Assembly: GCF_032854445.1 (NCBI RefSeq)
Contig: NC_088295.1
Location: 14,559,385 to 14,623,384, forward strand
Direction of reading: 5' to 3'
Origin: Liolophura sinensis
Lineage: Eukaryota > Mollusca > Polyplacophora > Chitonida > Chitonidae
DNA: 64,000 nt
The position numbers and the translations under genes were made by a program. Under the pieces are notes generated by a model. The model saw nothing but the letters and a program-made list of their open reading frames with translations, made no database searches and was not told the origin of the DNA. How positions within the stretch are numbered: position 1 is the first letter of the stretch; each line of letters opens with the position of its first letter. This document shows positions 22,701 through 54,859 of the stretch, one piece after another.

Positions 22701-25700
22701 TAAACAAAAGTTTAAATTAGTGTGGCAAAATTGGTGCAGTACACTACATTAAAAACCAAAGTTGCTTCTTGTGCACTGACATGTAACTGACAAAGCCAAT
22801 TCATGCCCTTCAATTCAATCAACAAGAGTAGAGTTTGTTAGCAATTTATGATCTCCAATATGATGGAGAAATACCACTTTATGAGACAGATCCTGATCAG
22901 CCATTGTTTCTATTCCACACTTTCCCAAAAAAGCAAGGGATATCAATCTGGGTGTGTGTCTGTCAAGATTGCTTTCTAAAAATGTTTTCCAATTCTGATC
23001 AAATTTTGTGTACAGGTTCACTCGGTTGAACCTCAATAAAATTAGAAAACCAGAATGATCTGTGGGTAAGTTCTACATGTTTAATGAATTATGTGATGGT
23101 CAGTGGTATCTATGCAACAAACACTGCCTAAAACTATTGTCCAATTTTGATAAAATTCGATTCATTTACTGGCCCCTGATCTAGTTCACAAATTATCTTA
23201 TTCCATGCTTAGCATATTTAGCAAAGGATATAACTTCGCTGAATTTGCGTTATTAAATTTAGACATCCTTGCTTTGGCAGGACATCTTTAGACAATGGCC
23301 CCACCATGAGTAGGAGTTCTCTACAGAGACTTGAACTAGTGTTCCTTACAGATAAAATTGTGGGTACGTGCAAGAAAACAGAGACAAATTTGGAACATAA
23401 AATCCAGCTGTGTTCTGTCTGTGTAAGTCTGAGTACCTGAGGAGCTCCATCAATTTCATCAATTATTAAACAATTTGGTCTGGGATCAGAGGTCAACACT
23501 GACTTCATCTGGGTGGCAGCTTCAATTTTTGTCAGAAAAGCTTCTACACTTCTATCATCACTGCAAGAAAAATGCATGGATTAGTAGCTCTAATAAATAT
23601 CCTGTACACAAAACATCAAAGAATTCAGTCATACAGGTAAAACAGTAGTCCTAGAACTAATTCCAAAGTACAGGTTTTAACTTAAAGTCAGATTTGATTT
23701 ATTAATTTATTTGATTGGCATTTCACGCCGTACTCAAGAATATTTCACTCATACAATTGCAGCCAACATTATAGTGGGAGGAAACTGGGCAGAGCCTATG
23801 GAAAGCCACAAGAATTCGTGGGTTGCTGACAGACCTCCTAACATACGACTGGAGAGGGAGCCCAGCCTGAGATGGAGTTGAACTCACAGCAATCAAATAA
23901 ATGACAGGCTCCTGGGTTATTATGCTGCGCTAGCACATTAATCACCAGGCCACCGAAGCCCAAGTGAGACTTGAACTTTCTAATTCTTATCTTTGGGCCA
24001 TTTGAGTTAAAATTGTGATCACACAATAAAGATTACATTCGGGCAAAGCTATCACATTGTGAGTTTACTGGACCATGATACATGTAAAAGCGCTTTAATG
24101 AATAAAATTAATGTACATCAACATTTTACAGTGTGGGCTTTCTTACCTGGCATTCATCTCCACTACATTGTATCCTGCATGGCTGGCTATGACATGAGCT
24201 AGAGTTGTCTTCCCTAATCCTGGAGGGCCACTCAGCAGAGCAACCTGAAAGGCACGGAGGCAAAGTGAACAAAAAACCCTATTTACCTAGAACTACCCAA
24301 CCTTGTCTAACGTTCTCTTTTTGCTGATCATTTTACCAGCCTAGTCATGAAACAGTAAATACGCAACAGCTAAGGCAGAAAATTATCTACCTTTCAACAC
24401 TTGATGACCTGACACACCACTGGACAGGACGAAACACACCACTCCTGAATGCTTAGTGGCTAGGAAAAATACCATGGCAACAACACAAACAAATGGACAG
24501 TTGCTAAATACAACAGCCCCAACATGATCATTTTACTGGAGAATTGTTCCAGCCAATCAAGAGCAGTTTTGTCACATACCATGGTTCAACACATCAAGAA
24601 AACCCACAAGATAGACTTCACACCTTTTGCTCTGGTCTGTTGAATTTGTCAAGTTCATCAGAGACTTCCATCTGAAATTTCTTCTTTTTGACATTTTCCT
24701 TATTTTTCTTCTTTTCCTTCTTTGCAGGTGGCTCTTTTCCAAACACTACAACATCCCACAGCTTGATCCAATGCAGCAATGTGCGGTTGATTAGCTGAAA
24801 ACAACACAAAGAAACGATAGGTTGAGGAAGTTTTTGCACATAAATTTATATTCTCATTGATTTTTTCCACCAAGAGGCTGTTTGTTGGGTGACCATTTCT
24901 AACGCATTACTACATATCTTTCAGCATAGGCATAAAATGTTCTTGGCATATATATGACTTGTCTAACAAAATATTTTGTTGAAATTCTCTCGATTTAAAT
25001 CTTTGCGCAGAATCATTTACATTCAAGCATGATCGTCAAATGGGTAAGCCTATTTTTGCATTCACACCAATACTCCACCTGACACAAAATACGTTCAGTT
25101 CCCTCAGTTATTATACTCTTTCCCTCAAAGAAACAGTGTTAGGGTTACCTTGAAAAGACATGATTCTTCAAAAATATCTCAGTTTGACCACCTTTATAGT
25201 CATGGGAACATTAGTACTCTCATTATTCAACCTTTTCGTGTACAAAAGGGCGATTAGATAAGTTATTATTAGATTTTGGTGACAAAACTGCCATAAAATG
25301 TGTAGTTTTATTAGTTTACACAGAATAATGAATTCATATTATGCTTGAATAAACACCTTGCATATGCAAAAAGGTTGAAGAATTACAGTATAGTTAGTAT
25401 GTAAGCTCTACATGCAAGATCAGGACAGATTTTTCGGCACACTGATATGTTATTACTTTGCCTCTAGCCAACTTCAAATCCCACTAACCCAAGCATAGAT
25501 TTAAATCCATTTAGCCAGCTACCGGTACCTTTTTCTGACCTCTTTATCCCTATATTTCAATGTTAAAAAATGTGTTTAAGGGGAGGTAACTACGTCTCAA
25601 AAGCATCCACTAACAGGCAGTGAATCCAGGCAATGTGAATTTCTTCACTCAACAACATCTTGGTTTTTTTTTTTACAAAGTTGCATCCCTATCCTGGCCC

Positions 25701-37528: not shown

Positions 37529-38545
37529 CTACAGAGACACAGGATCCTGGTCATCCCTTACATCTCGTAACTTGTCCCCAATAGGTGGAGGTGGTGGACT
37601 TTCCAAGTTCTCACTGAACAGGCGGAAATCAGCTGGCTCATACAGCTGGCTATTCACAAAGTCATCATCCATGTCAAGTGCATAAGGATTACAGGCATAC
37701 TGCGAGATGACAGGTGTGCCGTGCTCGTCCCACGACAGATTCCCGTCCGATCCCTTAGCGTGGTGGTTCTCTAGTGACAATATAGCAGGCACCCCTTCTG
37801 GGTCAGCCAGACTAGTGCTGCTGGAACTACTGTTAGAGTTGCTACTGTCCTCACTCGAGCTGTCCTCATCCTCATCATACAAACCTTTATCTGCCTCAAC
37901 ACCATTGCAACTGACACCAGCCGGGCGAGTCTGGGAGTTTTCCTCAACCATGGCCTCCTTGTGTGCCCCCGAGTTCTGCCTGGTGGCGCCCTCTACTGGG
38001 ATTGACTCGCTAAGGTCCTCCTCACTGATGTGCAGGTCGACCTGCAGCTCTGGGTGTTTAGCCGTCAAATCCTCCTCTTCGTCACTGCTATCCTCCTCAT
38101 CTCCCAGCATAGCAGCATTGGCAAGCGGCAATGCCACACCATTCAGGCCACCATCATTGGCAACTCTGGAGTTTTCCGCGGAAACTTCGCCTGAGAATGT
38201 GGATTCTTTGGGAAGACTTGAAGAGGAATTGCAGGATACAGAATCTGGGGAGTTCACAGAAGTGTCCTTGCCTGTTGGCAAGTCCGAACCATGAGCTGTA
38301 TCGGGAGAGTCTCTGCCATCCACAGCAGAAGGTGGATCGTCAGCTTCCAATGAGACAGCATTTAGTCTGTACCTCGGTGGATGTGCGTTTGTTGACTGAT
38401 TGACTGGCTTCTCTCGCAGATGCACTGGTGAGCTGTTTGGAAAGTGTGCAAAAACATGGTTGGCCACAACAGGTTGTATGGGTTGGTCATTGACAGGTTG
38501 TCCACTTTCCATGAGGATGAACACACTCTCATCAGTCTGGGTGGT
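37529..38545 (-). CDS. Neuregulin-like terminal exon: acidic, Ser-rich cytoplasmic tail
   Basis: One exon of 338 codons plus stop (TAG at 37531-37529). Starts TTQTDESVFILMESGQ. Contains acidic/Ser blocks (DEEDSSDEEEDL and DEDEDSSSEDSSNSNSSSSS, CK2-like), a PPPPPIG stretch and Tyr-containing C-terminal motifs (ACNPYALDMDDDF, NSQLYEPADF), ending DPVSL. I do not recognise the sequence motifs of vertebrate neuregulin tails. A 195-codon open frame on the opposite strand at 37707-38294 is a shadow of its codon bias. Confidence 0.9.
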   Translation of the reverse strand, partial: TTQTDESVFILMESGQPVNDQPIQPVVANHVFAHFPNSSPVHLREKPVNQSTNAHPPRYRLNAVSLEADDPPSAVDGRDSPDTAHGSDLPTGKDTSVNSPDSVSCNSSSSLPKESTFSGEVSAENSRVANDGGLNGVALPLANAAMLGDEEDSSDEEEDLTAKHPELQVDLHISEEDLSESIPVEGATRQNSGAHKEAMVEENSQTRPAGVSCNGVEADKGLYDEDEDSSSEDSSNSNSSSSSTSLADPEGVPAILSLENHHAKGSDGNLSWDEHGTPVISQYACNPYALDMDDDFVNSQLYEPADFRLFSENLESPPPPPIGDKLRDVRDDQDPVSL

Positions 38546-41500
38546 CTACAACAGGTAAATATAGTGGTCAGACAGGTAAAGCCTCACTATAAGCTCCAGG
38601 AGGCAGGTAATCATTTACAACACTTCACTTTCAAGGTTTACTTAAAGCAATAACAACAATAAAAGCAAACTGAAAGAAAACAACAATAAATAGCATATAC
38701 ATTTACCAGAAATACAAAATTATAATATTACACACAAAAATTTACAGTACAAAGTTACCAGTAGAATTATTGCTTTAATTCAACGATTTGTCTTTCGAAA
38801 GTTAAGATCAGTACTAGTAATGCACAAAATGCAAAATGCAACTGGAAATTGAGTGCAGCAAAAAGTTTCAACATGCTGTTTCAAGTTAAGGGCTTCATGC
38901 TGAACAGTTAAGACATGGGCAAAGTGATATCAATAGAAAAAAACAAAATAAGCTGTAAATACAAATGTGTAACAGAAGATTTTATGAGCTGTGATAAATT
39001 GTACACATATTCAGACTTCGATAAGGCCGGATTTTACCATGGACATCTTCTTAGGATTGGAAGAGTTAGCTGCTGAATCGACCTCATCTCTGAGGAGAGG
39101 TTTGTAGGACTCATTAACATCCCGTCTCCTCTCTTCCCTCCGTTTGTAAAAACTTGTTCTCTTCTGCCTAAATCAAACAGGGTGTAACTGATATGTAATA
39201 CTGGAGTACTTTCATCAATAATGACTAATCTGTAAAGAATCCACTCTTCTTGGTCTGAAAGAAAACTTATATCCTAGTTGCACAATAAAAAAGGCAAAGC
39301 CTTGTAAGATGTAAGTAAAAGTAATTAGATTAGGAATCTACTGGTAAGTCAGTAAGTGTTTTGATTGAAGTAACAAAATATAGAGCAAGATTAAATGCTT
39401 ATGTCTTGTAGACATGAAATTTAAGTAAATACTTTAAAGCAAACCAAAAAAATAACAACACATTTCATCTAACAGTAAATTCACTTTTTGATTAATTTAT
39501 TTATTTATTTGATTGGTGTTTTACACCAGTCTCAAGGATATTTCACTTATACAACGGTGGCCAGCATTATGGTGGGAGGAAAACCATGACCATCCACAGG
39601 TTGCAAATTCACTTTTCGAAGCAAATTTCCAAGATCCATAAACCAAAGAAAAATAATTTTGTTGACTGACTACCTGACAACTCATACAAATTTCATTCAG
39701 AAGTAATTATTGAAGTAATTATATATAGGGTCACATATATATATGTACTAAGCAAGCTAACAAAATAATTATCAGAATCAGAATTGCTGGATATCTAAAT
39801 TTCTTAAGTTTTTGAAGATGTCAACAGCATACGTAGGTTACTATGGACACGGAGAAGGAGGTACTTACTTGGCCAAGTAGTAAGACAGTATACAGATGAC
39901 TATGAAGACCAGGCAGGCAATCACTATGCCTATAACTATTAAGGTACGGTCACGTTCAAGTTTTGCTTTGGCTGGAAATAAACCATGTCTGTCTTACATA
40001 TACGGTTAATCAGTGTTATATTGGAACAGGAGCTTTGTGGCTGCTGCATATACCCCCAACTCTGGCATGCTGACCATGGCATACGTGCTGGTCCTCCAGA
40101 GATGAGGGTTACCACAACAACCAATGGTTACCATGGTAATGCATGCTTTTCAGAATCGTCCATCTCATGCAAACAAAAGTTTGTGATCATTTGCTTTTTA
40201 AATCTGAAATGAGTATTTAATAAACAAACATTTTTATCAACATTAGTATGTTTAAACTGAGTGGTACATTATCACCATGGCAACCAATGAAGCACAATTA
40301 TGTTTTCCATCAAGCCTAACAAATGCAAATGATTTTTATGCAACATAAACATTCTAAAAAATGGAAAATAATAAGCTGACAATTAACAGGGGAATTTCAG
40401 ACAAGCTGAAAACATGCCATGTACTTCTTCAATAAACAAAAACAAAAGCAGCATTCAGTTGGTTAGATTTTGCATTGAAACTTCAGGCTTACCAATCACT
40501 TTTTACCAGCTATAAATAATTCAAACGAAACAAATGGCAATGAAATATAAACATGACAAAACACTGAGCTAGAAAAACAAATGTCAGCATTATCACACAT
40601 ACACATCACAGAGAGAGAGAATCGAACTCTTCATCAAGTTGTAACTCTTTTACATCTAGTTAGAAGAGGACAATAGACACCTTTGCACACACATTCAGCT
40701 TCTGAACAAAAGAAATTGTAAAGCTCTCTACACAATAAAAAGCCATGATTTTGCAACCACCAAGGCTGTTTTACATTTCCTTAACACAGCACACACTTCT
40801 AAGGGCTGCAATGGAGCAATTTGATATCCTATTGTAAACCTTAGATCCTGAGCTGTGCTCAGAACACATCATGAGTGAATACATTTACACTGAATCTGTG
40901 AGATGTTTTACGTTACTAGCGGTATAAGGGCATTTGAATTCCATCCTTCATTTATGGACACTGCTGGAATCCATTCCTTAACAATGAAAGTTGCCATGAA
41001 AGAAATCTATTTGATGTGTACTCTAACAAGGTGTCTGCAAAACAGCCAAGGTTTTATCTGCTACAATATCTACATTTTAATTTCAGCAGGGTGAAGTACA
41101 TTAGGGTGAAAATTGCTCAATGAATGAAAATAAAACAGAATAATCTGTCCTAAAAGCAATTCCAAAAACATCACTCATACTTAGATGTTGGGATTTGCAA
41201 GACTATCAATCACTTTGTGATGTAGGGATTTGCAAACCTATCAATCATTCTGTGACATTGGGATTTGCAAGACTATCAATCATACTGAGATGTAAGGATT
41301 TGCTAAAGAGGTAAGTTTCAGAACAACTCCAGTACAAATCAGAATTACACTGTATTTGTACCATTCAAGTGGAATAATGTACTTGGCAATCAACACTGGT
41401 GCCAAAACCAAGTGGCAATGGAATCTGGGATGCATTTCTCAGTTGTATAATGCTGGGATAGCTACATGTGCAGTACTGGTAGATCAAATGATGCCATGAA

Positions 41501-44500
41501 TCTATTGGAGCATTCTTAAGTTTTCAATTTCATCCTGAATGAAATGGTACGCACATTGACACTTTGACATATAAAAAGCATGCAGAAAAAAAGCAACCAT
41601 ATGTACATACTTTCAAATGGTCCAAACACTCTGAAGACATCCCTATATTCGCAGCGTTTTCCAGAAAATTCCTGAGAGCACCTAAATATGAGCAATGATA
41701 ATGAAAGTGTTATTGTAGAGAGATGGATGGCAAGGAGTGGCAAGCTCAGAGGATTACAGGACAGAAGACGCTGAGAGAATGGACACCACCCCCGGAGTTC
41801 TGAGCCACACCCATGCCTGGGAGCCACGTCTCACTCTACTATTACCTGTAAGCAGGACTGAGGTTATCTAGCACAGACTTTTACATACGGACAGTGATTA
41901 TACGTTCTAAAAAAGGACCACACAGAAGGCAGGTTATTGTTGTTCCAGGTGTAAACAAGCCTTGCCAATCAAGTTCTGTGGTTGATCTTCAAGCAAGGCT
42001 ATCAGCAAGTACTTAAGACAGAGTACCATCACACCAGCCCATCTATAGGCCGCCTGCTGCAAAACACATGCCACATCAAGGTCATATCAAGGACAACCAA
42101 ATTGGATTCTGCTTTCACACAACTAGGTTAATATGAACAACAAGTTTCAAAATCCATAACAAGTTGTTATTCTGTTTTAGTGTAAAAACAATTTTCAAAT
42201 TATCTCCAACTTTGACCACAACAAGGGTTAATTTAAGAACAACAAATCTGTCAACACCATGCAGACAGGCCTAGGTTTGAATTTTGTATGCATTTAAAGA
42301 CTAACAATAATGGACATTTCTTTGAAATCACTGCCAGTGTCGAGTAGGCATGGACAGTTTACCTGACACCTAATGGGCAGTCCCCTCAACAGGGGGGTAA
42401 TCCTTTAGTGAGGTAAAACACTGAACAGCCAACAGCCAGTCTGGCAGATCAAGACAAAATATCAATTTACATCTGAAAATGGTGACAAGGTCAGAAAAGG
42501 CTCCTCATTGAGAAACTTGATGGTAAGGCAGTCATATTGCGCCTGGTGTAGATGGAATCAGTCAGTAATAGTACAATGTAATTGGAAACAAAACTTGGCA
42601 TGCCATGCTCAAAGATCAGCAACAGGGAACATGTGTTTGGTGGGCCTGATCCCACCGTCCTACCCTCTCGTGGTGGTTCCTCTGTATAGGGGTATATGGC
42701 CTGCTGATGCTGACATCGGTCCCCACCATGGGTGATAGGACACCTGTAACACCAGCAGCAGCACAACTTAGTATGGTTTCAAACAATTAGTCACCTCTCT
42801 TTCTTCTCAGGTAAACCATGATGAGATGAATACTTGTCATACAAAATGGTAATTATGGCAACAAAATCTACACTTTTCCAACACTTACTTAGGCTTTGGC
42901 AGAAAAAAACCTCTGCAGCTGTTTATATCTGTTTCCACAAATTTTGCATCACAAGCCCTTCCAGCAACCAGAATACACTAGGCATTACACTATACATAGG
43001 AAGAAAATTCCCTCCTCTTTGCCCTACACATCTTCACAAAGGATCAGACACAAGTTATATCTGCAGTAATGCCTTCAGCTTTTAAATCTCTTAGACTGTT
43101 TCCTTTTAAATTAAATAGCAGTATATCATAGTAACATTGTAACAATTTTAGGGGGTGATCAAAATCACTCCCTATAACTCACCATAAACTAGCCTTATGA
43201 CTCTGAGCTTGAAATTATACCTTTATTTGAGCTGATTGCCGCATGAGATGAGGTAAGGTAAATGATATCCACAAAATGTGCTATTTTATGATACTCCCTC
43301 TTTATGTTATACACTAACCCGAAAATGAACAGACAAGCCTTGGTAAATTGATAAATGGGATCAATCTCTCTCTCAAAAACTCACCTTCAACTAGTCGGAT
43401 CAATCTGAGTTTAAAATATATAGTTTTACTTACACCGATTTATAAGGCCTTTAATATTCATAAAATGTCTTGAATTTATGATATCCCCCTCTTTGTATGT
43501 TGGGTGAACTGTGCACTAACCGTACACAAACAGGAATTCCTTGATAAGATAATGAATTTGCAATATTACCCTCCTTTACAGACATTTTGAACATAAAACT
43601 TAATTGACAATGGCTGGACCAGTAGGCTGTAGTAAAACTGGGCCTTCGCAAAATTTTAATCCCAAAAGAGTGAGAATATTTTTAACTGTCTTTATGCCTT
43701 ACAGCACCAATTATCATTGTCACAAACCTGGTAGATAAAAATTACAAAAATAACAAATGAAATTTTGGATTAATTTCATTTATGCAATCTATACTTTCAA
43801 TAAATATAGTTTCTCATTATATTCATATTATGAACTAAATAGAATGTTTAATGAACATTAAAGTTCATGGTTTAGTTTATTTTTGTTCAATGTACTATGC
43901 CACTACATATATAGAGGTACAGTAGAAATCTTACCGACAAAATCGTTCACCCAGATCCTTTGAATAGAAACACTTTCCCCCATTGAGACAGAGACCTCGG
44001 TGAGCCTTCCTGCAAAGAGTAAATCTAGGGGAGGTCTGCTCCACAGGAACTGTTGTGGTGGTGTCTGCAAACATGAATCGAAAGATGGAATTACCACACA
44101 TGTAGTGTTCACCTGCATGCTGTTTTTATACCTAACACCTGGCTGAGCTATGCACACTCAAAACCACTAACTTGCATATTATGCCAGCCAATGACCATAT
44201 TTAATGATACTTTTACACTCATCCACATCGTCAACTTTAATGCAGTTTAATACTTCACAAATATAAACCATAAAGCAACAATACATCAACATAGTACAAC
44301 ATGGATGTACTCAGTGAGAACAACAAAAAATCAAAATCTGCATTATGTCATTTCTTCAATGGGTATAAAGGCTCTATGAATAGTAAGTTAGTTAGGATTT
44401 TGATATGTTATTTTCCAGGTAACACAATTTAATACAGCAGCTATATTTATTTTCATCAAGTATTTACATTTAAACATTGACTCACCTGATTTGCTTGTTA

Positions 44501-47500: not shown

Positions 47501-50500
47501 GGAGTGACTTTGATGTTACATATTATATCTTTTAACATGAATGGAATCAGTTGTGTAAGTATTTGTTTTTATTATTAATTCGTCTCTTATATTATCTAGG
47601 AGATATGCACCCATTACTATGCTAAACAGATAACACGCTTCTACCTCTAGCAAGATATTTTCCCTGCTCTTTATGCGCAATTACAGATACTGTCACCTTT
47701 GCCTGATAAGAATATACCACAATCTACAGAGAAGTCTCAGCTTTATAAGAACAATATACCACTAGAGATTATATCTTTATGATATTTCCATCTCTGGTTA
47801 ACACAAAATACAGACATCATTTCTTTCTGGGATTCCTATGCCATTGGTAGAACACAGTGTGAAGATGTGATGATGGTAATATGGCTTCAAGAGCTTCATT
47901 CTCTTGGAGAGGGATGAACAGCAGAAAAATGGCCTCTGAACAGATAGCATGTGCCAGTTGATAGGATTTTAATGAACCAATCTGGAAAATCCATCCTGAG
48001 CCTGGAAATGTCATTAAATGTCAGTAATGTATGGAGACTAAAAGGGACCATGCCCCATAAAGTTCTGTCCAAAAGAGCTAGTGAAGTGTAAAATGTCTTT
48101 GAAGATCCTGAGGAAACCCAGGAACAAGTCACTTTTTGCTGAGAAAGATTGTTAGCCTTTGGAGAACCACTTGTCAGAAATATCATCTGCATTTATCACT
48201 TGGTTAGACAGTTGGGGGAGGAGGGAGGTTGTGACTTCAGGAAGCCCCCCTAGGGAGAGGGGACCAGACCTTAATAAGCATGTGCTCTAGGCCCCTACCT
48301 AATGATGGCTTGTGTCAGAAGATTGGAGGCAGTGGAGTGTAGCCATCTTAGCAAGAGAGTTTTATACCAACAGGTTGATGTGTCAAGTGGGAGTTCGAAA
48401 AGTTAACTAGAGCTAAGGTGCTAGACAACAGCTGGGGGATCAGCACAGATCTGTCTAGAGCCCTGAGCAGCTACACATTAAGCAAACCATAAAGATAACA
48501 GCCTTGTAAAAAACATCAACTGAAGAAAAAAAACCTGGTTAGGACAGACGGTCTCATCTGAAGCGTAGAGCCCCCACTTATGTTGCTCCATCTTACCACC
48601 ACTGATGTGCACAATTTATGAGCACTCACAGTCATCAGTCTCATAGCCACTTACTTAAAAAAAAGGAAAAAAAGAACACGGTTGTCTGGAAGAAAGGTAA
48701 TATCTACAGAAACCAGACAGTCCTTCTGGCAGCTAGTTCCACGTAAGAGCATGTAGGGAAGAGACAAATTCATGAAAATACACTGTATTTAACACACCTT
48801 TAATCGAAATATTTTTACAATTGAAAAACCCTTCTTTTAGACAGTAAGACCTTGGAATTTAGGCAAAACGATCATTGCATATTTAAATTCAACATGTTAT
48901 CATCCATGGTGTCCAATAAAACTGTTACACTTCAAAATGCTACCTCAAAGTTCAGTTTACATAGTTCTGGTAGGAAAGGTTATAGCGTGATCAAATTCAC
49001 ACTGGGTCGTCATGATGTAAACTTAGTATGCTCAGTAATAGTATAACTTTAATTGTAGGGTCAGTTCTTAAATGTGATGCTCATGATGGTGTGACAATGA
49101 AAGTGATGCTCATGATGGTGTGACAATGAAAGTGATGCTCATGATGGTGTGACAATGAATGTGATGCTCATGATGGTGTGACAATGAATGTGATGCTCAT
49201 GATGGTATGACAATGAAAGTGATGCTCATGATGGTGTGACAATGAATGTGATGCTCATGATGGTATGACAATGAAAGTGATGCTCATGATGGTGTGACAA
49301 TGAAAGTGATGCTCATGATGGTATGACAATGAAAGTGATGCTCATGATGGTGTGACAATGAAAGTGATGCTCATGATGGTGTGACAATGAAAGTGATGCT
49401 CATGATGGTGTGACAATGAAAGTGATGCTCATGATGGTATGACAATGAAAGTGATGCTCATGATGGTGTGACAATGAATGTGATGCTCATGATGGTATGA
49501 CAATGAAAGTGATGCTCATGATGGTGTGACAATGAAAGTGATGCTCATGATGGTGTGACAATGAAAGTGATGCTCATGATGGTATGACAATGAAAGTGAT
49601 GCTCATGATGGTGTGACAATGAAAGTGATGCTCATGATGGTGTGACAATGAAAGTGATGTCCATGATGGTGTGACAATGAAATCCTGAATCAGTCAATCG
49701 ATTAAATCCAAAGAACTGACATTGTAGAGTCTGGCTCCACTCAGCCAATGAAAAACTATGGACTTTATGTCCTACCTACCATCTAGGAACTCAGAATGTC
49801 AGGGGATAGAATCAAGGGTCTGTTGCATATATCTGTATTATAAATAGTAGTAGTAGTCACACACAATTTCTACAGTAAGTAATCCGTTAAGAGAATGGAT
49901 CTGACTGACAAATCTATAGCAGGATTTTGTCTGGCAGTCAGTGGTCTTTCCTGCAGACTCATCTAAGGTGATCAGGTTCAGTTTAGCCTGTAAGAATTAC
50001 CTGATACAACACACAAGCTCAGCCACGTGGGGCTCTGTTAGTATTATCAACACACAGCTCAAGATAACCAGTTTAGTTAGATCAATAGTCCCACACACTG
50101 AGTCCACCGCAATAGGTGTCTATTTAATCCAACAAGGCAGTGTTTCTGTGCCACTTAGTTACACTTACAGCTATGTCAGATTCGTTGAAGATGCTCCGAT
50201 GACCTTTTAACATTTCACTCAATGTGGTTATCAGAGATGGGAAAAGCACTGTGAAAATGTCAACAAAACTGGAGCATTATCTTTACTCATCAAAGGGTTC
50301 AGAAGAGAGACTGGCTTACTGTAGCCTGGGTACAAGGTAGATTCAGCTGTGGGTGCTCTGTGACCACATGGCAGCCAGGCTGGTGAAGCCAGGTTTACAT
50401 AAGGTAGTACATCTGGGAGGGCTGACCCTTGGCAAAAAGAGGCTGGTTAGCTGGGAAAGGTGCAGCCACATTAAGTGGCTGGGGAATTCCAGCAACAGAG

Positions 50501-53455
50501 ATAACTGCTTACTATCACCTGCAGACAGAAAATCAGCTCTCTGTCTACCAACACGATACAACTTTAACCGACTTACTATGACGAAGTACAGCTCACAACT
50601 TGGAACGCATCCTTGCATCCATATATACCTCCCCTTGCTTTCCCAATCAATGTCAATGGATCACTTAAGAACTCCCTTTGCATAAGTGCAAAATTGTAAA
50701 GTAATGATATGCATTTTATCCTACAACCCAAAAAACCTTTCCACTGTCCGGTACAGTGGCAGTTATATTTGGTCTGAAATCCTGACTCATCATATAGTTG
50801 TGTGGTAACATGCAATACCTCGTATCAGTGAGTGAGTGAGTGAGTGAGTGAGTGCGTGCTTGGGGTTTAACGTCGTACTCAACACTTTTTCAGTCATTTG
50901 ACGATGGAAGGAATCCTTAAAGTTTATGTAATGTGCCTCCTTGTTGCAGGACGGGTTTCCACCCCTCTGTTAACTAGTGCTGCTTCACTGAGACGACTCA
51001 CCGAAGGCAAGTAAGCTGCTCCGCCCAAGGCATTATACTGATACGGGTCAACCAGTCGTTTCACTATCCCCTTCATGCTGAACGCCAAGCAAAGAAGTTA
51101 CAACTTCCTCTTTTAAAGTCTTAGGTGTGACTCAATCAAGGATTGATCCTGGATCTACCGGTCCCGAAGCAGACGCTCTACGAACTATGCTATCCGGGCC
51201 GGTCAATACGTCATATGAACATTAGAGGACAGAAGGACCCCAGTAATTCATTGATGATAGTACATTTATTACCCCCAGTAAACAATTAAGGATATGGTAT
51301 GACCCCGAGTAGACATTTAAGAATATGGTATGACCCCAGTAAATGATAAAAAGAAACAAGAAAAAGTATAACCAGTGTAAACCAGCATAGGCCTCACCTT
51401 TTAATCTGGAATTCTTACCAGGCCATGGGATAAGCCATTTTAGAGAAACCAGAAAGACGATGTTGTGTCATCTGTAACCTACACTCTTCAGTATTAGAGG
51501 CAAGACGCTCCTTTGTCATGCCAAGTACGATCCTTCTTATCATTACAACCAAAGGCCACAAAATGGCCTTTGGGCAAGATAAAATTAAAGAAAAATCAAT
51601 GAATGCTACAAGAATAAAATGTAAAATCCCCCTCTGTAATTTTTTCCCAATGTTTTCAGGATTTTTTTAGGTTTTTTGAGATTTTATATTTCAAGCTTTT
51701 CAATCACTTATAAAAAATACCACAAATTAGATGATTTTTAAGTTTTATTTTTATACCCTCCTATACCTGCTGGGAAAAGCAAAAAAAAAACAAAAAACAC
51801 TTTAAATTGGTGTGGCCTTGGGAAATATTACATGCAATATCACCTTTACAATAAATTTAGTAACATTCAACATGTAGGTATACATGCACAAATAATGACA
51901 CTAAACATGAATTAGTTCTTTTATCTTTATATTATTCCTTGATAGACGCCACAGTATTCTGTAAAGACCATTATATACAAGACCCTGATAATTCCTCGAT
52001 TCATGAAGGAGATAAACATATTTCCTTGTACTCATTTACCATCAAGTCTCAATCTAATGCCAAGTCTACATTACCTTTTATCCGTATTCATCAAACTATG
52101 CGACCATAATGGAAAAGTCAAAAGTTCCTATTTTAATAACGTTACCTTACCATTACTGCCATAACATGCATGTTACAGAGACATCTGTGGTATTTACAGA
52201 GAATGGTTACCAATAAACTTTCCCCTAAAATTTTGGTCTCATGACTTGGACAGTGAGGTTTATGATTGACTTGCACATGCAGCATGATCGAACAAAACTA
52301 CAAAGATCAACAAAAATATGTCAAATGTACTCCTGTTAAATAGGACGTCATGGGAATCTGACCTTTTTTCTCGATGAGTATGGCTTTACCAGTCTGAAAG
52401 GCATTCTGGCCAAGCATTTTATTTGGGATCTTTTTTAAATCAATTCTATGAAAATAATGCAGACAGAATTGTCCAAAAGGATCCAGGTGGCATGAGTATG
52501 GTTAAGAATAAAGCTAAGCAATGTGCACTTTGGTCATAAATTGAAAGCAATCCCATGGCACTGACCCAACTGAAATATCTCAGAGTCTGCTCGAAATCCA
52601 CTGGCCAGGGCAGTAAGCTAGCATATCCAAGTAGTCTGTGGGAGGTCATATGAGGAAAGCTGGACCCCTGGGAGAGTATAGTCAGCTGTAACAGCACAAC
52701 CCTAGGGAGAGGCAAAGTACTGGGCCAGATAAACACACCCCAGCTGTAATTGAAGTATTTCCCTTTCTCAGCATCATAACCATCAACCCTAAACAAGGTT
52801 CAGGGACCTCACTACCTAAGTACTGTCACTAATACCCTATTAACACCAGTTAGCACCAGCAAATTGCCACATCTTCATCCTTACCAGGACTTCTGCACAT
52901 GTGCTTCTCATGACAGATAAAGGTAGCTTGTCAAAAGAAAGTAACTGTACAAATCAAATTCATATCCCCTTGGACAAACCTCCCAGAGCCTCAGATTATT
53001 TATTTCATTTTCACCTATACTCAAGAACTGAAAATGTGAACATTGAAAGAATTAAAGCAGCTAGTTAAATAGCTGATAAACTATGGAAGCCTTCAGTGGA
53101 TGTACATTATTGTTTAACAAAAATATAGGTAACATTAAAAAGTTACCATCCTGCTCGAATGTATGTTGACATGGCAACTTTAGGCCAGACACTAGAGCCA
53201 ATCAAATTCAAGTGATATTTAATGACTGGCAAGTTACATTTATAAAAGAAATTGAAAAAAAGACAGGAATTTGAAAAGATTTCACTTACTTTCCCTTCTT
53301 TATCCTCATTCCCTTGGCCTTGCTCAGAACCTTCCCATCCTTCAGCCACGTTATCTTTGGACGAGGATATCCGGACGCAGAGCATTTTAATGTAATTTTA
53401 CTCCCCTCCTTCACAGTTATACTTTTTAATCTTTTATTAATCCTCGGTGGTTTTG
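37529..53455 (-). CDS. Neuregulin-type ErbB ligand precursor (Ig + EGF + TM), 5' end not found
   Basis: Membrane-tethered precursor predicted to release an EGF-domain ligand for ErbB receptors. Exons: Ig-C2 (53290-53455, 47058-47167), optional microexon 44486-44500, EGF first half (43935-44064), EGF second half from either 42664-42743 or 41611-41681, transmembrane (39869-39971), juxtamembrane (39038-39167), cytoplasmic tail and stop (37529-38545). Splice phases agree throughout. The visible part encodes about 577 or 574 aa depending on the EGF exon, without the microexon. EGF spacing is C-x7-C-x5-C-x10-C-x-C-x8-C with NGG-CF--KDL after the second Cys, and Arg directly before the sixth Cys, as in ErbB ligands. 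Ig followed by EGF, TM and a long tail is the neuregulin layout. Drosophila Vein has Ig+EGF but no TM. Signal peptide and N-terminus lie upstream and are unidentified. Confidence 0.88.
39038..39167 (-). CDS. Neuregulin-like exon: basic juxtamembrane region
   Basis: Encodes QKRTSFYKRREERRRDVNES, then YKPLLRDEVDSAANSSNPKK and MSM. The cluster of Arg/Lys just inside the membrane is a stop-transfer signal and recalls KTKKQRKKLHDRLRQS of NRG1. Donor GTAAAA, phase 0. Confidence 0.9.
39488..39602 (-). repeat. SINE-A partial copy in neuregulin-like intron
   Basis: TTAATTTATTTATTTATTTG, ATTGGTGTTTTACACCAGTC, AAGGATATTTCACTTATACA, GGCCAGCATTATGGTGGGAGG and CATGACCATCCACAGGTTGC: the 3' half of SINE-A in minus orientation, between the juxtamembrane and TM exons. 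Confidence 0.8.
39869..39971 (-). CDS. Neuregulin-like exon: transmembrane segment
   Basis: Encodes KAKLERDR followed by a hydrophobic run of about 23 residues (TLIVIGIVIACLVFIVICIL) and SYYLAK. Charged residues flank a single-pass helix. The extracellular stalk is very short (about 15-20 residues from the sixth Cys). Ends AA at GTAAGT. Confidence 0.93.
39972..41610 (-). other. Neuregulin-like intron between EGF exon B and the TM exon
   Basis: 1.6 kb, AT-rich. Includes a 35-bp tandem repeat at 41184-41306. I found no further in-phase exon. Confidence 0.6.
41184..41306. repeat. 35-bp tandem repeat, 3.5 copies
   Basis: Three full units starting at 41184, 41219 and 41254, plus a half unit, built around GGGATTTGCAAGACTATCAA. 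It lies about 300 bp downstream (transcript sense) of alternative EGF exon B. Confidence 0.85.
41611..41681 (-). CDS. Neuregulin-like alternative exon B: EGF cysteines 5-6 and stalk
   Basis: Encodes CSQEFSGKRCEYRDVFRVF then GPFE. C-x8-C with G-K-R-C at the end, completing the EGF fold begun in exon 43935-44064. Acceptor CATATTTAG, donor GTATGT. Ends with one base (A), joined to CC of the TM exon to give Thr. It has the better donor of the pair and is the EGF exon proximal to the TM. Confidence 0.92.
42664..42743 (-). CDS. Neuregulin-like alternative exon A: EGF cysteines 5-6 and stalk
   Basis: Acceptor TGGTGTTACAG, then G|TGT. Encodes CPITHGGDRCQHQQAIYPY and TEEPPRE: C-x8-C with Arg before the last Cys, close to NRG1-beta (CPNEFTGDRCQNY). 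Ends with one base at GTAGGA, a weak donor. Start and end phases equal those of exon B at 41611-41681. Including both would break frame, so use must be mutually exclusive. It predicts a stalk three residues longer than B. Confidence 0.72.
43935..44064 (-). CDS. Neuregulin-like exon: Thr-rich linker and first half of EGF domain
   Basis: Begins TTTTVPVEQTSPRFTL, then CRKAHRGLCLNGGKCFYSKD and LGERFC. This gives EGF cysteines 1-4 with x7, x5 and x10 spacing. LCLNGGKCF--KDL closely resembles the NRG signature (FCVNGGECFMVKDL in NRG1). Ends CG at a GTAAGA donor; the next exon supplies G to make Arg before cysteine 5. Confidence 0.95.
44486..44500 (-). CDS. Candidate 15-nt microexon in the Ig-EGF linker
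   Basis: Fifteen bases flanked on the minus strand by a long T-rich tract ending GTTTTCAG and by donor GTGAGT. Included between Ig-b and the EGF exon it would add V-T-S-K-S with frame kept (G+TA ... G+AC). Skipping it also keeps frame, so it would be a cassette exon. No transcript evidence. Confidence 0.5.
44501..47057 (-). other. Neuregulin-like intron between Ig and microexon
   Basis: 2.6 kb. Several open frames on both strands reach about 90-128 codons, but none has paired splice sites in phase or recognisable domains. Confidence 0.5.
47058..47167 (-). CDS. Neuregulin-like exon: second half of Ig-C2 domain
   Basis: Encodes RGSRLQYRRASRRAEGEYKC, then VAENVLKHVERTVDIE. The D/E-G-E-Y-x-C F-strand motif supplies the second Ig cysteine (compare DSGEYMC in NRG1). 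Acceptor CTTTTACAG, donor GTACAG, ending with one base so it can join either the microexon or the EGF exon in frame. Confidence 0.93.
49074..49682. repeat. 29-bp minisatellite, exactly 21 units
   Basis: 609 bp with no indels. The unit reads GTGATGCTCATGATGG followed by T(G/A)TGACAATGAA(A/T). Apart from a GTGATGTCC change in the last unit, variation is confined to those two positions. Not coding: 29 is not a multiple of three and stops are frequent. Confidence 0.97.
50822..51206 (-). repeat. SINE-B, full-length copy with (TCAC)n tail
   Basis: Minus sense: tRNA-like head GGCCCGGATAGCATAGTTCG then TAGAGCGTCTGCTTCGGGAC, a conserved body including TTGCCTTCGGTGAGTCGTCTC and CCTGCAACAAGGAGGC, and a tail of TCAC repeats at 50826-50850. 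A 5'-truncated copy occurs at 8580-8825. Confidence 0.85.
53290..53455 (-). CDS. Neuregulin-like exon: first half of Ig-C2 domain
   Basis: Encodes KPPRINKRLKSITVKEGSK, then ITLKCSASGYPRP and KITWLKDGKVL. The B-strand Cys and the W 12 residues later define an Ig C2/I-set fold. It is Lys/Arg-rich, like the heparan-sulfate-binding Ig domain of NRG1; binding here is inference. It needs one base from a missing upstream exon and ends after two bases at GTAAGT. Confidence 0.92.
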
Positions 53456-54859
53456 CTGCAAAGAGAAAAGGCAAGTCAGATATAACATATTGTCTGAGGA
53501 GAGGTACAAGAGCAGTGCTGTATCACAGAAATCTCACTGTCAGTCAACGCATTATTAAGTTGGAGTTAAGATTTCCTTTAAACAAATGTAAAGATTGGGC
53601 ATGACAAAAATAACACTAGCGGCTGCTTGATAAAGATAAGCATTCCAGAAAATTATGATACCTTTACAGACTACACACACGTGATACATAAAAGTCTTCC
53701 AGATCATATGTTTAATTGAAACTTCCTTGAAGACATGCCAATTTAAGCACAAGGCATTTGACTCAGAGGCAGGGAATCAACTGTCAAAATGACTCATTTT
53801 TTTGTTCCATTTCAGATATTAACAATTTCTGTCTTCTAGACTGTTATATCTAGAAGATCACAAACACAACACATAAAAAGGCACAACTGTGGTGTAGCAG
53901 ATGATTGCTTCAGCACATTTTCTGCAGCAAAATGGATTGGTTTTATACATATGTTTTTATAGAAGAGAATGGCACCACTGAAGCAATTTCAAGTAAAATT
54001 GTGTGAAACCTTTCCTCCCTGGAGAATGGCGACAAGTATCACCTAGGGAAGTTTACTTGTTGACTTCAGTGTCCTTAAGTAACTGAGACATGTAAGTGAG
54101 ACACCAGATAAAATAAAATTGTCAACAGCTACACTCCATTTAGCTGGAACCTGATTCTCCTGCAGGTTTTACCAGACCAGATGGTTCAGCTTTAAGCTGG
54201 CTGCTCAGCTTCTCCTCAGCAGGCCAACTGACACATCTAATCATAACAAATTCCTTAATTCTACAGGCTAAGCTCAACAACTAAACCAGTCTTAATTCTT
54301 GTAAAAATAACTTATAACACTAAATCAGATGCTGCCACTTTTCTTTTTTTAAGTTTCTACTTTTCATTCATAAGTATCAACACTAAAGCTCTACTAAGTT
54401 TTGTACTGCAACATCCAAAGCAATGGGTGGGGGGGGGGGACTCAAAGTGCAAAAAACGCTACCATATACAGATCTGTGTTTACATGCATGTACTTTTATG
54501 CATGTACATGCAAAAACTTTCTTTTGAAGTTCCACAAGTCAAAAACTGTTCTTGTGCAGCTTACTCCTATACAGAGTAATCCCTGTGACTCATTGGGTGT
54601 TCTTGCATGAACCTTATTTGAGAACTTCATATAAATAAACAAGGAAAGAAAAATTGCTATGTTACTTGTATGCAGAGAGTTTATTAACTTGACAAAAACC
54701 AGAATTAAGCAGGGCAGAAAAAACTAAAATCAAGGGTAAAAAGTAGAAAAGCAATCTCATATACCATATTATTGCATGCAAGTTCTGTTTCTTTTTCAGA
54801 TTTATTTTTTCACTTTGTATTTTATTTTTTTAATCTCTGTTCTATGGGTTTGGTCTTAC

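What the first reader, a model, noticed from the sequence alone, without database searches (positions are those of the whole stretch)
41611..42743. Mutually exclusive EGF C-loop exons in an invertebrate neuregulin-like gene
Two exons, 42664-42743 and 41611-41681, each carry EGF cysteines 5 and 6 with C-x8-C spacing, Arg before the last Cys, and a distinct stalk. Both start needing two bases and end with one base, so each joins the same upstream EGF exon and the same TM exon, and using both breaks frame. Vertebrate NRG1 makes alpha and beta isoforms, with different receptor affinity, in the same way at the same place. Exon A (CPITHGGDRC) resembles NRG1-beta; exon B (CSQEFSGKRC) differs. If expressed, a spiralian ErbB ligand has this switch, either ancient or convergent. 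I know of no description in molluscs, but I could not search.
Basis: partly seen in the sequence, partly recalled or inferred. Interest (0 to 1): 0.88.

Follow-up and report, generated by a model that had tools for sequence, protein, structure and literature searches.

The report
Chiton neuregulin with two EGF-loop exons
A chiton's neuregulin-type growth-factor gene carries two interchangeable exons for the receptor-binding loop, laid out like the alpha/beta exons of mammalian NRG1, so this switch may exist outside vertebrates, but no RNA evidence was available to show that both are used.

Summary
On the minus strand, exon A (42743-42664) and exon B (41681-41611) each encode EGF cysteines 5 and 6 as C-x5-G-x-R-C. 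Both fit the same flanking exons in frame, while using both or neither shifts the frame. The gene is a neuregulin-type ErbB ligand: I-set Ig domain, ErbB-ligand EGF domain, TM, long tail. The genome is the chiton Liolophura japonica (632 scaffolds; 4 of 5 contig lengths seen agree to the base). The shared EGF exon is 130 nt and the TM exon 103 nt, the lengths in the Nrg1 exon names E130 and E103. A and B (80 and 71 nt) have the same length modulo 3 as alpha E68 and beta E59. Chance is unlikely: the loop motif is expected at about 1.5e-4 to 6.6e-4 per intron of this size. Splice sites of both exons lie in the neighbours' range, and A and B are too diverged for a long-dead copy to remain intact. 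Expression, cross-species conservation, receptor preference and ancient versus convergent origin could not be tested. 'A is NRG1-beta-like' is only weakly supported.

The parts
53290..53455 (-). Ig domain, first half (exon 166 nt)
   Evidence: AG/GT borders and frame; with the next exon I-set PF07679 71.1 bits
47058..47167 (-). Ig domain, second half (exon 110 nt)
44486..44500 (-). 15-nt spacer exon (VTSKS); weakest part of the model
   Evidence: frame and strong splice sites only
43935..44064 (-). shared EGF exon, Cys 1-4 (130 nt)
   Evidence: PDB ErbB-ligand hits; the Nrg1 EGFc exon is named E130 by length
42664..42743 (-). exon A: EGF Cys 5-6 CPITHGGDRC plus stalk QHQQAIYPYTEEPPRE (80 nt)
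41611..41681 (-). exon B: EGF Cys 5-6 CSQEFSGKRC plus stalk EYRDVFRVFGPFE (71 nt)
41579..41584 (-). TGCATG, 27 nt past the last base of exon B; candidate RBFOX-type splicing site (motif function recalled; one of 3 TGCATG in the intron)
   Evidence: inference only
39869..39971 (-). transmembrane exon (103 nt)
   Evidence: the Nrg1 TMc exon is named E103 by length
39038..39167 (-). cytoplasmic exon 1 (130 nt)
37529..38545 (-). last coding exon, long cytoplasmic tail ending DDQDPVSL*
   Evidence: no Pfam match over cut-off

Best explanation
The gene makes two membrane-anchored neuregulin-type ErbB ligands that differ only in the last EGF loop and the stalk next to the membrane. The splicing machinery joins the EGF exon either to A or to B, and then to the TM exon. 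SHOWN: gene structure by sequence, frames, splice-site quality, no second copy found. INFERRED: both junctions are used in vivo. Exclusivity is probably enforced mainly by frame: transcripts with both or neither stop early and would be removed or give truncated products. The two exons lie 982 nt apart, so steric blocking is unlikely. INFERRED: the swap changes receptor binding strength or choice and stalk cleavage, as alpha versus beta changes potency in vertebrates. The genome holds three loci with ErbB-type L1 exons, so choice between receptors is conceivable.
For: Frames and exclusivity. Motif far above chance. Acceptor and donor scores: A at percentiles 98.4 and 97.4, B at 93.5 and 93.2 of all AG and GT on this strand of the window, inside the range of the other exons (acceptors 86.5-99.9; donors 88.4-100). 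A and B agree at 14 of 31 nt in the loop and 26 of 71 overall, ungapped, and all 4 shared loop residues (C, G, R, C) use different third bases. In a simulation of neutral decay with indels, an intact exon survived in 1 of 20,000 (A) and 3 of 20,000 (B) at 0.5 substitutions per site, and 0 of 20,000 each at 1.0. The stretches around A and B each match only themselves in the genome (that search skips simple repeats and very common words). Both joined EGF domains find ErbB ligands first among PDB chains. EGF and TM exon lengths equal those in the Nrg1 exon names. ErbB-type L1 exons at C4, C11 and C12.
Against: No transcript was seen. No second species was seen. At low divergence an intact dead copy is common enough (1,712 and 1,922 of 20,000 at 0.1 substitutions per site), so a recent death of A or B after long use is not excluded. 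The splice-site matrices are approximate and recalled. Pfam EGF is below its cut-off with both exons (A 18.2, B 20.9; cut-off 21.5). The N-terminal exon and signal peptide were not identified.
Confidence: 0.7

Rival explanations
1. One of the two exons (more likely A, whose loop is less typical) is a recently disabled or unspliced duplicate and only one ligand is made.
For: No RNA evidence. The Pfam EGF score with A (18.2) is lower than with B (20.9). A has His where ErbB ligands usually have Tyr or Phe in this loop (recalled).
Against: Reading frame, both splice sites, Cys pair, Gly and Arg are intact despite strong divergence from B. A's splice sites score higher than B's.
Confidence: 0.15
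2. Both exons are used but not as a clean switch: A followed by B, or reading on from A, gives a soluble truncated ligand with a complete EGF domain, like the '3' stalk NRG1 forms.
For: A+B keeps EGF-A intact and stops in the TM exon before the membrane span. Vertebrate Nrg1 has soluble '3' stalk isoforms (PMC3176322, passages).
Against: Such a stop lies upstream of further junctions, a usual target of nonsense-mediated decay (general knowledge). No AATAAA/ATTAAA within the 982 nt after A.
Confidence: 0.1
3. Exon A is a chance open stretch with splice-like ends.
For: Relaxed C-x8-C segments with any in-phase GT are not rare (0.037 per intron of this size).
Against: Full motif expected 1.5e-4 to 6.6e-4 per intron; no simulated case in 25.6 Mb also had an in-phase GT.
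Confidence: 0.03

Closest known systems
Vertebrate NRG1 EGF-alpha (E68) / EGF-beta (E59) exons
   Same: Alternative exons for the end of the EGF domain, between an EGFc exon named E130 and a TM exon named E103 (names give lengths); 68, 59, 80 and 71 are all 2 mod 3. [quoted passage not shown]
   Different: Chiton exons are each longer, have different loops and stalks, and neither can be assigned to alpha or beta by sequence. Expression not shown.
C. elegans lin-3 splice variants S, L, XL
   Same: Invertebrate EGFR ligand with alternative splicing between the EGF domain and the TM segment (PMC519001, passages seen).
   Different: lin-3 uses an alternative donor and an inserted exon that lengthen the stalk; the EGF loop itself is not exchanged.
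Metazoan NRG-type ligands (EGF + I-set + TM), including one in Crassostrea gigas
   Same: Same domain set; the survey's table lists C. gigas 1 neuregulin-like, L. gigantea 0 (PMC4914847, passages seen).
   Different: That paper's main text has no occurrence of 'splic' or 'exon'.

Membership tests
NRG-type ErbB ligand (EGF + I-set Ig + TM, as defined in PMC4914847) | I-set immunoglobulin domain | tested here: met
   PF07679 71.1 bits, cut-off 23.7
NRG-type ErbB ligand (EGF + I-set Ig + TM, as defined in PMC4914847) | EGF domain of ErbB-ligand kind | tested here: met
   First PDB hits are EGF/TGF-alpha chimeras, NRG1, EGF, epiregulin (best E 3e-8 with A, 4.6e-8 with B). Pfam PF00008 itself stays below cut-off (18.2 and 20.9 v 21.5)
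NRG-type ErbB ligand (EGF + I-set Ig + TM, as defined in PMC4914847) | transmembrane segment | tested here: met
   LIVIGIVIACLVFIVICILSYYL read directly in the 103-nt exon; no TM predictor was run
Vertebrate NRG1/NRG2 proper | neuregulin intracellular domain (PF02158, accession recalled) | tested here: not met
   No such match up to E 10 for the joined TM and tail (414 aa), nor; HMMER's filters can drop weak matches. So it is filed as NRG-type, not as NRG1
Mutually exclusive exon pair | same intron, same phases, using both or neither breaks frame | tested here: met
Mutually exclusive exon pair | exons derived from one another | tested here: inconclusive
   4 of 10 loop residues and 14 of 31 nt identical; too little to tell
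Mutually exclusive exon pair | transcripts contain one or the other, never both | not testable with these tools
   no RNA data available
NRG1 alpha/beta switch by descent | position between EGFc and TM exons with compatible phases | tested here: met
   Lengths 130/103 equal to E130/E103; all four alternative exons 2 mod 3. Phases of the mammalian introns themselves were not read here
NRG1 alpha/beta switch by descent | one exon orthologous to alpha, the other to beta | tested here: inconclusive
   Bits do not separate them

The most novel reading that the evidence does not exclude
The two-exon C-loop switch of neuregulin is older than the split of protostomes and deuterostomes and has been kept in chitons and vertebrates, making NRG alpha/beta one of the oldest mutually exclusive exon pairs, and a ligand splice code that predates the vertebrate set of four ErbB receptors.
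Probability: 0.2. Interest if true: 0.85.

Novelty: new member of a known kind. Interest (0 to 1): 0.6.

Why it matters
Alpha/beta loop choice sets the potency of NRG1 in vertebrates. A matching exon pair in a chiton means that either the switch is ancient or evolution hit on the same solution twice at the same intron. Both can be tested with published chiton RNA-seq and genomes. It would also give a simple animal in which to ask what the loop swap does.

Tried and rejected
Third copy of the loop exon: none by this motif in the intron or elsewhere on either strand of the window. Paralogous gene in the genome: none found; beyond this locus the best matches are E 0.06 (with B) and 0.17 (with A). 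Of the three weak matches cut out as loci, L004 and L005 read as long multi-EGF or repeat-rich frames and L006 as a frame without an EGF pattern (my reading); the other weak matches were not read. Exon A or B as part of a repeat: each stretch matched only itself. Related loci in GTDB genome contigs, in case of host contamination: 93 pattern matches, none confirmed. RNA structure as a switch: folds around A and B are not better than shuffles (z -0.13 and -0.64); a stem that would cover A's acceptor is in A's fold but carries no weight. Steric exclusion: held unlikely, A and B are 982 nt apart. Signal-peptide exon upstream of 53455: 6 hydrophobic starts listed on the minus strand; only the one at 54760 was looked at by eye and it has no convincing in-phase donor; left open. 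A single-ErbB-receptor reading, suggested by the receptor-IV family hits (3 on C4, 4 on C10), was dropped after ErbB-type L1 exons were read at three loci. Of these three, only C4 also has domain-IV and furin-like matches near it, so C11 and C12 may be partial; the C12 family match spans two stops. The C10 domain-IV and furin-like matches lie where no L-domain match was listed and were not counted as receptors. Literature: searches (1 of 1 listed; 20 of 44; 0; 12 of 123; 3 of 3; 15 of 16; 15 of 65; 10 of 10; 8 of 42) showed, by title and start of abstract, no paper on a mollusc neuregulin splice switch. Lists were capped, the library holds only open-licence papers, and no sequence-database annotations could be consulted. 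Passages were also seen of PMC13085346 and PMC5687690 (nothing used) and PMC12005716 (no occurrence of neuregulin; reports a partial genome duplication in L. japonica).

Full report
WHAT IS THERE. The minus strand of the window holds nine coding exons, eight per transcript since A and B are alternatives: Ig1 53455-53290, Ig2 47167-47058, a 15-nt spacer exon 44500-44486, EGF exon 44064-43935, exon A 42743-42664, exon B 41681-41611, TM exon 39971-39869, cytoplasmic exon 39167-39038 and last exon 38545-37529. All intron borders are GT/AG. The joined frame is open from the Ig domain to the stop with A (582 residues) and with B (579 residues). It shifts and stops early with both exons (200 residues) or with neither (144 residues).

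WHICH ANIMAL. The window lies in a genome of 609,464,459 bases in 632 contigs. The Liolophura japonica assembly is reported as 609,495,693 bp in 632 scaffolds (PMC11068029, passages seen), 31,234 bases more. Of the five contigs whose lengths were shown, four equal scaffolds of that paper's Table 3 to the base (58,388,612; 32,819,725; 31,077,156; 25,057,479); the fifth, C10 (36,632,598), is near but not equal to scaffold_6 (36,638,032). A row of 8 molluscan haemocyanin domains is present.

WHICH GENE. The first domain is an I-set Ig (71.1 bits). The EGF domain joined to A or to B finds, among PDB chains, ErbB ligands first: EGF/TGF-alpha chimeras, NRG1, EGF, epiregulin. Pfam's general EGF model stays just below cut-off with both (18.2 and 20.9 v 21.5). 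A hydrophobic TM segment and a tail of about 380 residues follow. This is the NRG-type architecture as defined in PMC4914847 (passages seen). The vertebrate neuregulin intracellular domain was not found, so I do not call it NRG1. No second gene of this kind was found in the genome.

SAME EXON GRID AS NRG1. PMC3176322 (passages seen) uses Nrg1 exon names in which the number is the length: EGFc E130, alpha E68, beta E59, TMc E103. Here the shared EGF exon is 130 nt and the TM exon 103 nt, and A and B are 80 and 71 nt. All four alternative exons are 2 mod 3, as exons joining phase 2 to phase 1 must be. This places the chiton pair in the corresponding intron. It does not show that the pair itself is inherited.

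MORE THAN CHANCE. In 64 kb on both strands only A and B have AG|G-Cys-x5-Gly-x-Arg-Cys. The expected number per 3,963-nt intron is 1.5e-4 (Markov model, from a single event in 25.6 Mb) or 6.6e-4 (202 genome matches, control 116). Splice sites of A and B fall within the range of the neighbouring exons (approximate matrices). A and B share 4 of 10 loop residues, and all four shared residues use different third bases; DNA identity is 14 of 31 in the loop and 26 of 71 overall. If they come from one exon, the duplication is old and both copies stayed intact: in a neutral simulation an intact exon remained in 1,712 (A) and 1,922 (B) of 20,000 runs at 0.1 substitutions per site, 102 and 79 at 0.25, 1 and 3 at 0.5, and none at 1.0. 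This argues for long selection on both, but not against a recent loss of one.

HOW IT LIKELY WORKS. Splicing joins the EGF exon to A or B, then to TM. The 982-nt gap makes simple steric exclusion unlikely, so frame, probably with regulated splice choice, keeps the products apart. A TGCATG lies 27 nt past exon B. One such hexamer within 100 nt is expected by chance about once in 40 such stretches (arithmetic, equal base frequencies), so this is a lead only. The loop and stalk exchanged are those that in ErbB ligands contact the receptor and hold the shedding site (general knowledge). Three loci carry ErbB-type L1 exons (C4, C11, C12; best PDB hits are EGF receptors with E 4e-22, 5.2e-18 and 2.2e-13), while C8 reads as insulin-receptor type (my reading of the letters). 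Only C4 shows further receptor domains nearby. So both altered strength and altered receptor choice are possible.

A OR B LIKE ALPHA OR BETA? Bits with A / with B: NRG1 3u7u (beta-type) 35.6 / 34.8, heregulin-alpha 1hre 26.4 / 31.4, EGF 1ivo 30.7 / 34.1, Spitz 3ltf 18.4 / 26.5. A leans to beta only relative to the others; B is the more general ErbB-ligand loop and nearly equals A against beta. I do not assign either.

NOVELTY. Searches, whose lists were partly capped, showed no account of such a pair outside vertebrates. The closest invertebrate case seen is lin-3, where the stalk but not the loop varies. The library is open-licence only, and isoform annotations in sequence databases could not be consulted, so 'not in print' is limited to these searches. 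The kind of switch is known from vertebrates; the new part is its presence in a mollusc genome and the identical neighbouring exon lengths.

LIMITS. No RNA, no second species, no receptor assay. The exon model before 53455 is open.

Noticed in passing
window 49074-49682: Minisatellite with a 29-nt unit, 21 copies, 96% matches, in the intron between the two Ig exons.
   Followed up: no
window 23218-23577, minus strand: Exon-like ORF; 72 residues of it were searched and match chromosome transmission fidelity protein 18 homolog over residues 3-47 (E 2.6e-13, PDB 9uiq): a neighbouring CHTF18-like gene. Pfam gave no match for the whole ORF.
   Followed up: partly
G000 contigs C99 and C632: C99 carries COX1 seven times about every 15.5 kb (one copy shorter), C632 once: looks like a mitochondrial concatemer left in the assembly.
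   Followed up: no
G000:C4:15.09-15.11 Mb, C11:20.63 Mb, C12:9.33 Mb: Three loci with ErbB-type L1 exons in the chiton genome; the survey paper's table lists 2 EGFRs each for L. gigantea and C. gigas. C11 and C12 may be partial.
   Followed up: partly
window 41579-41584: TGCATG 27 nt downstream of exon B, a possible RBFOX-type site; expected by chance about once in 40 such 100-nt stretches.
   Followed up: no
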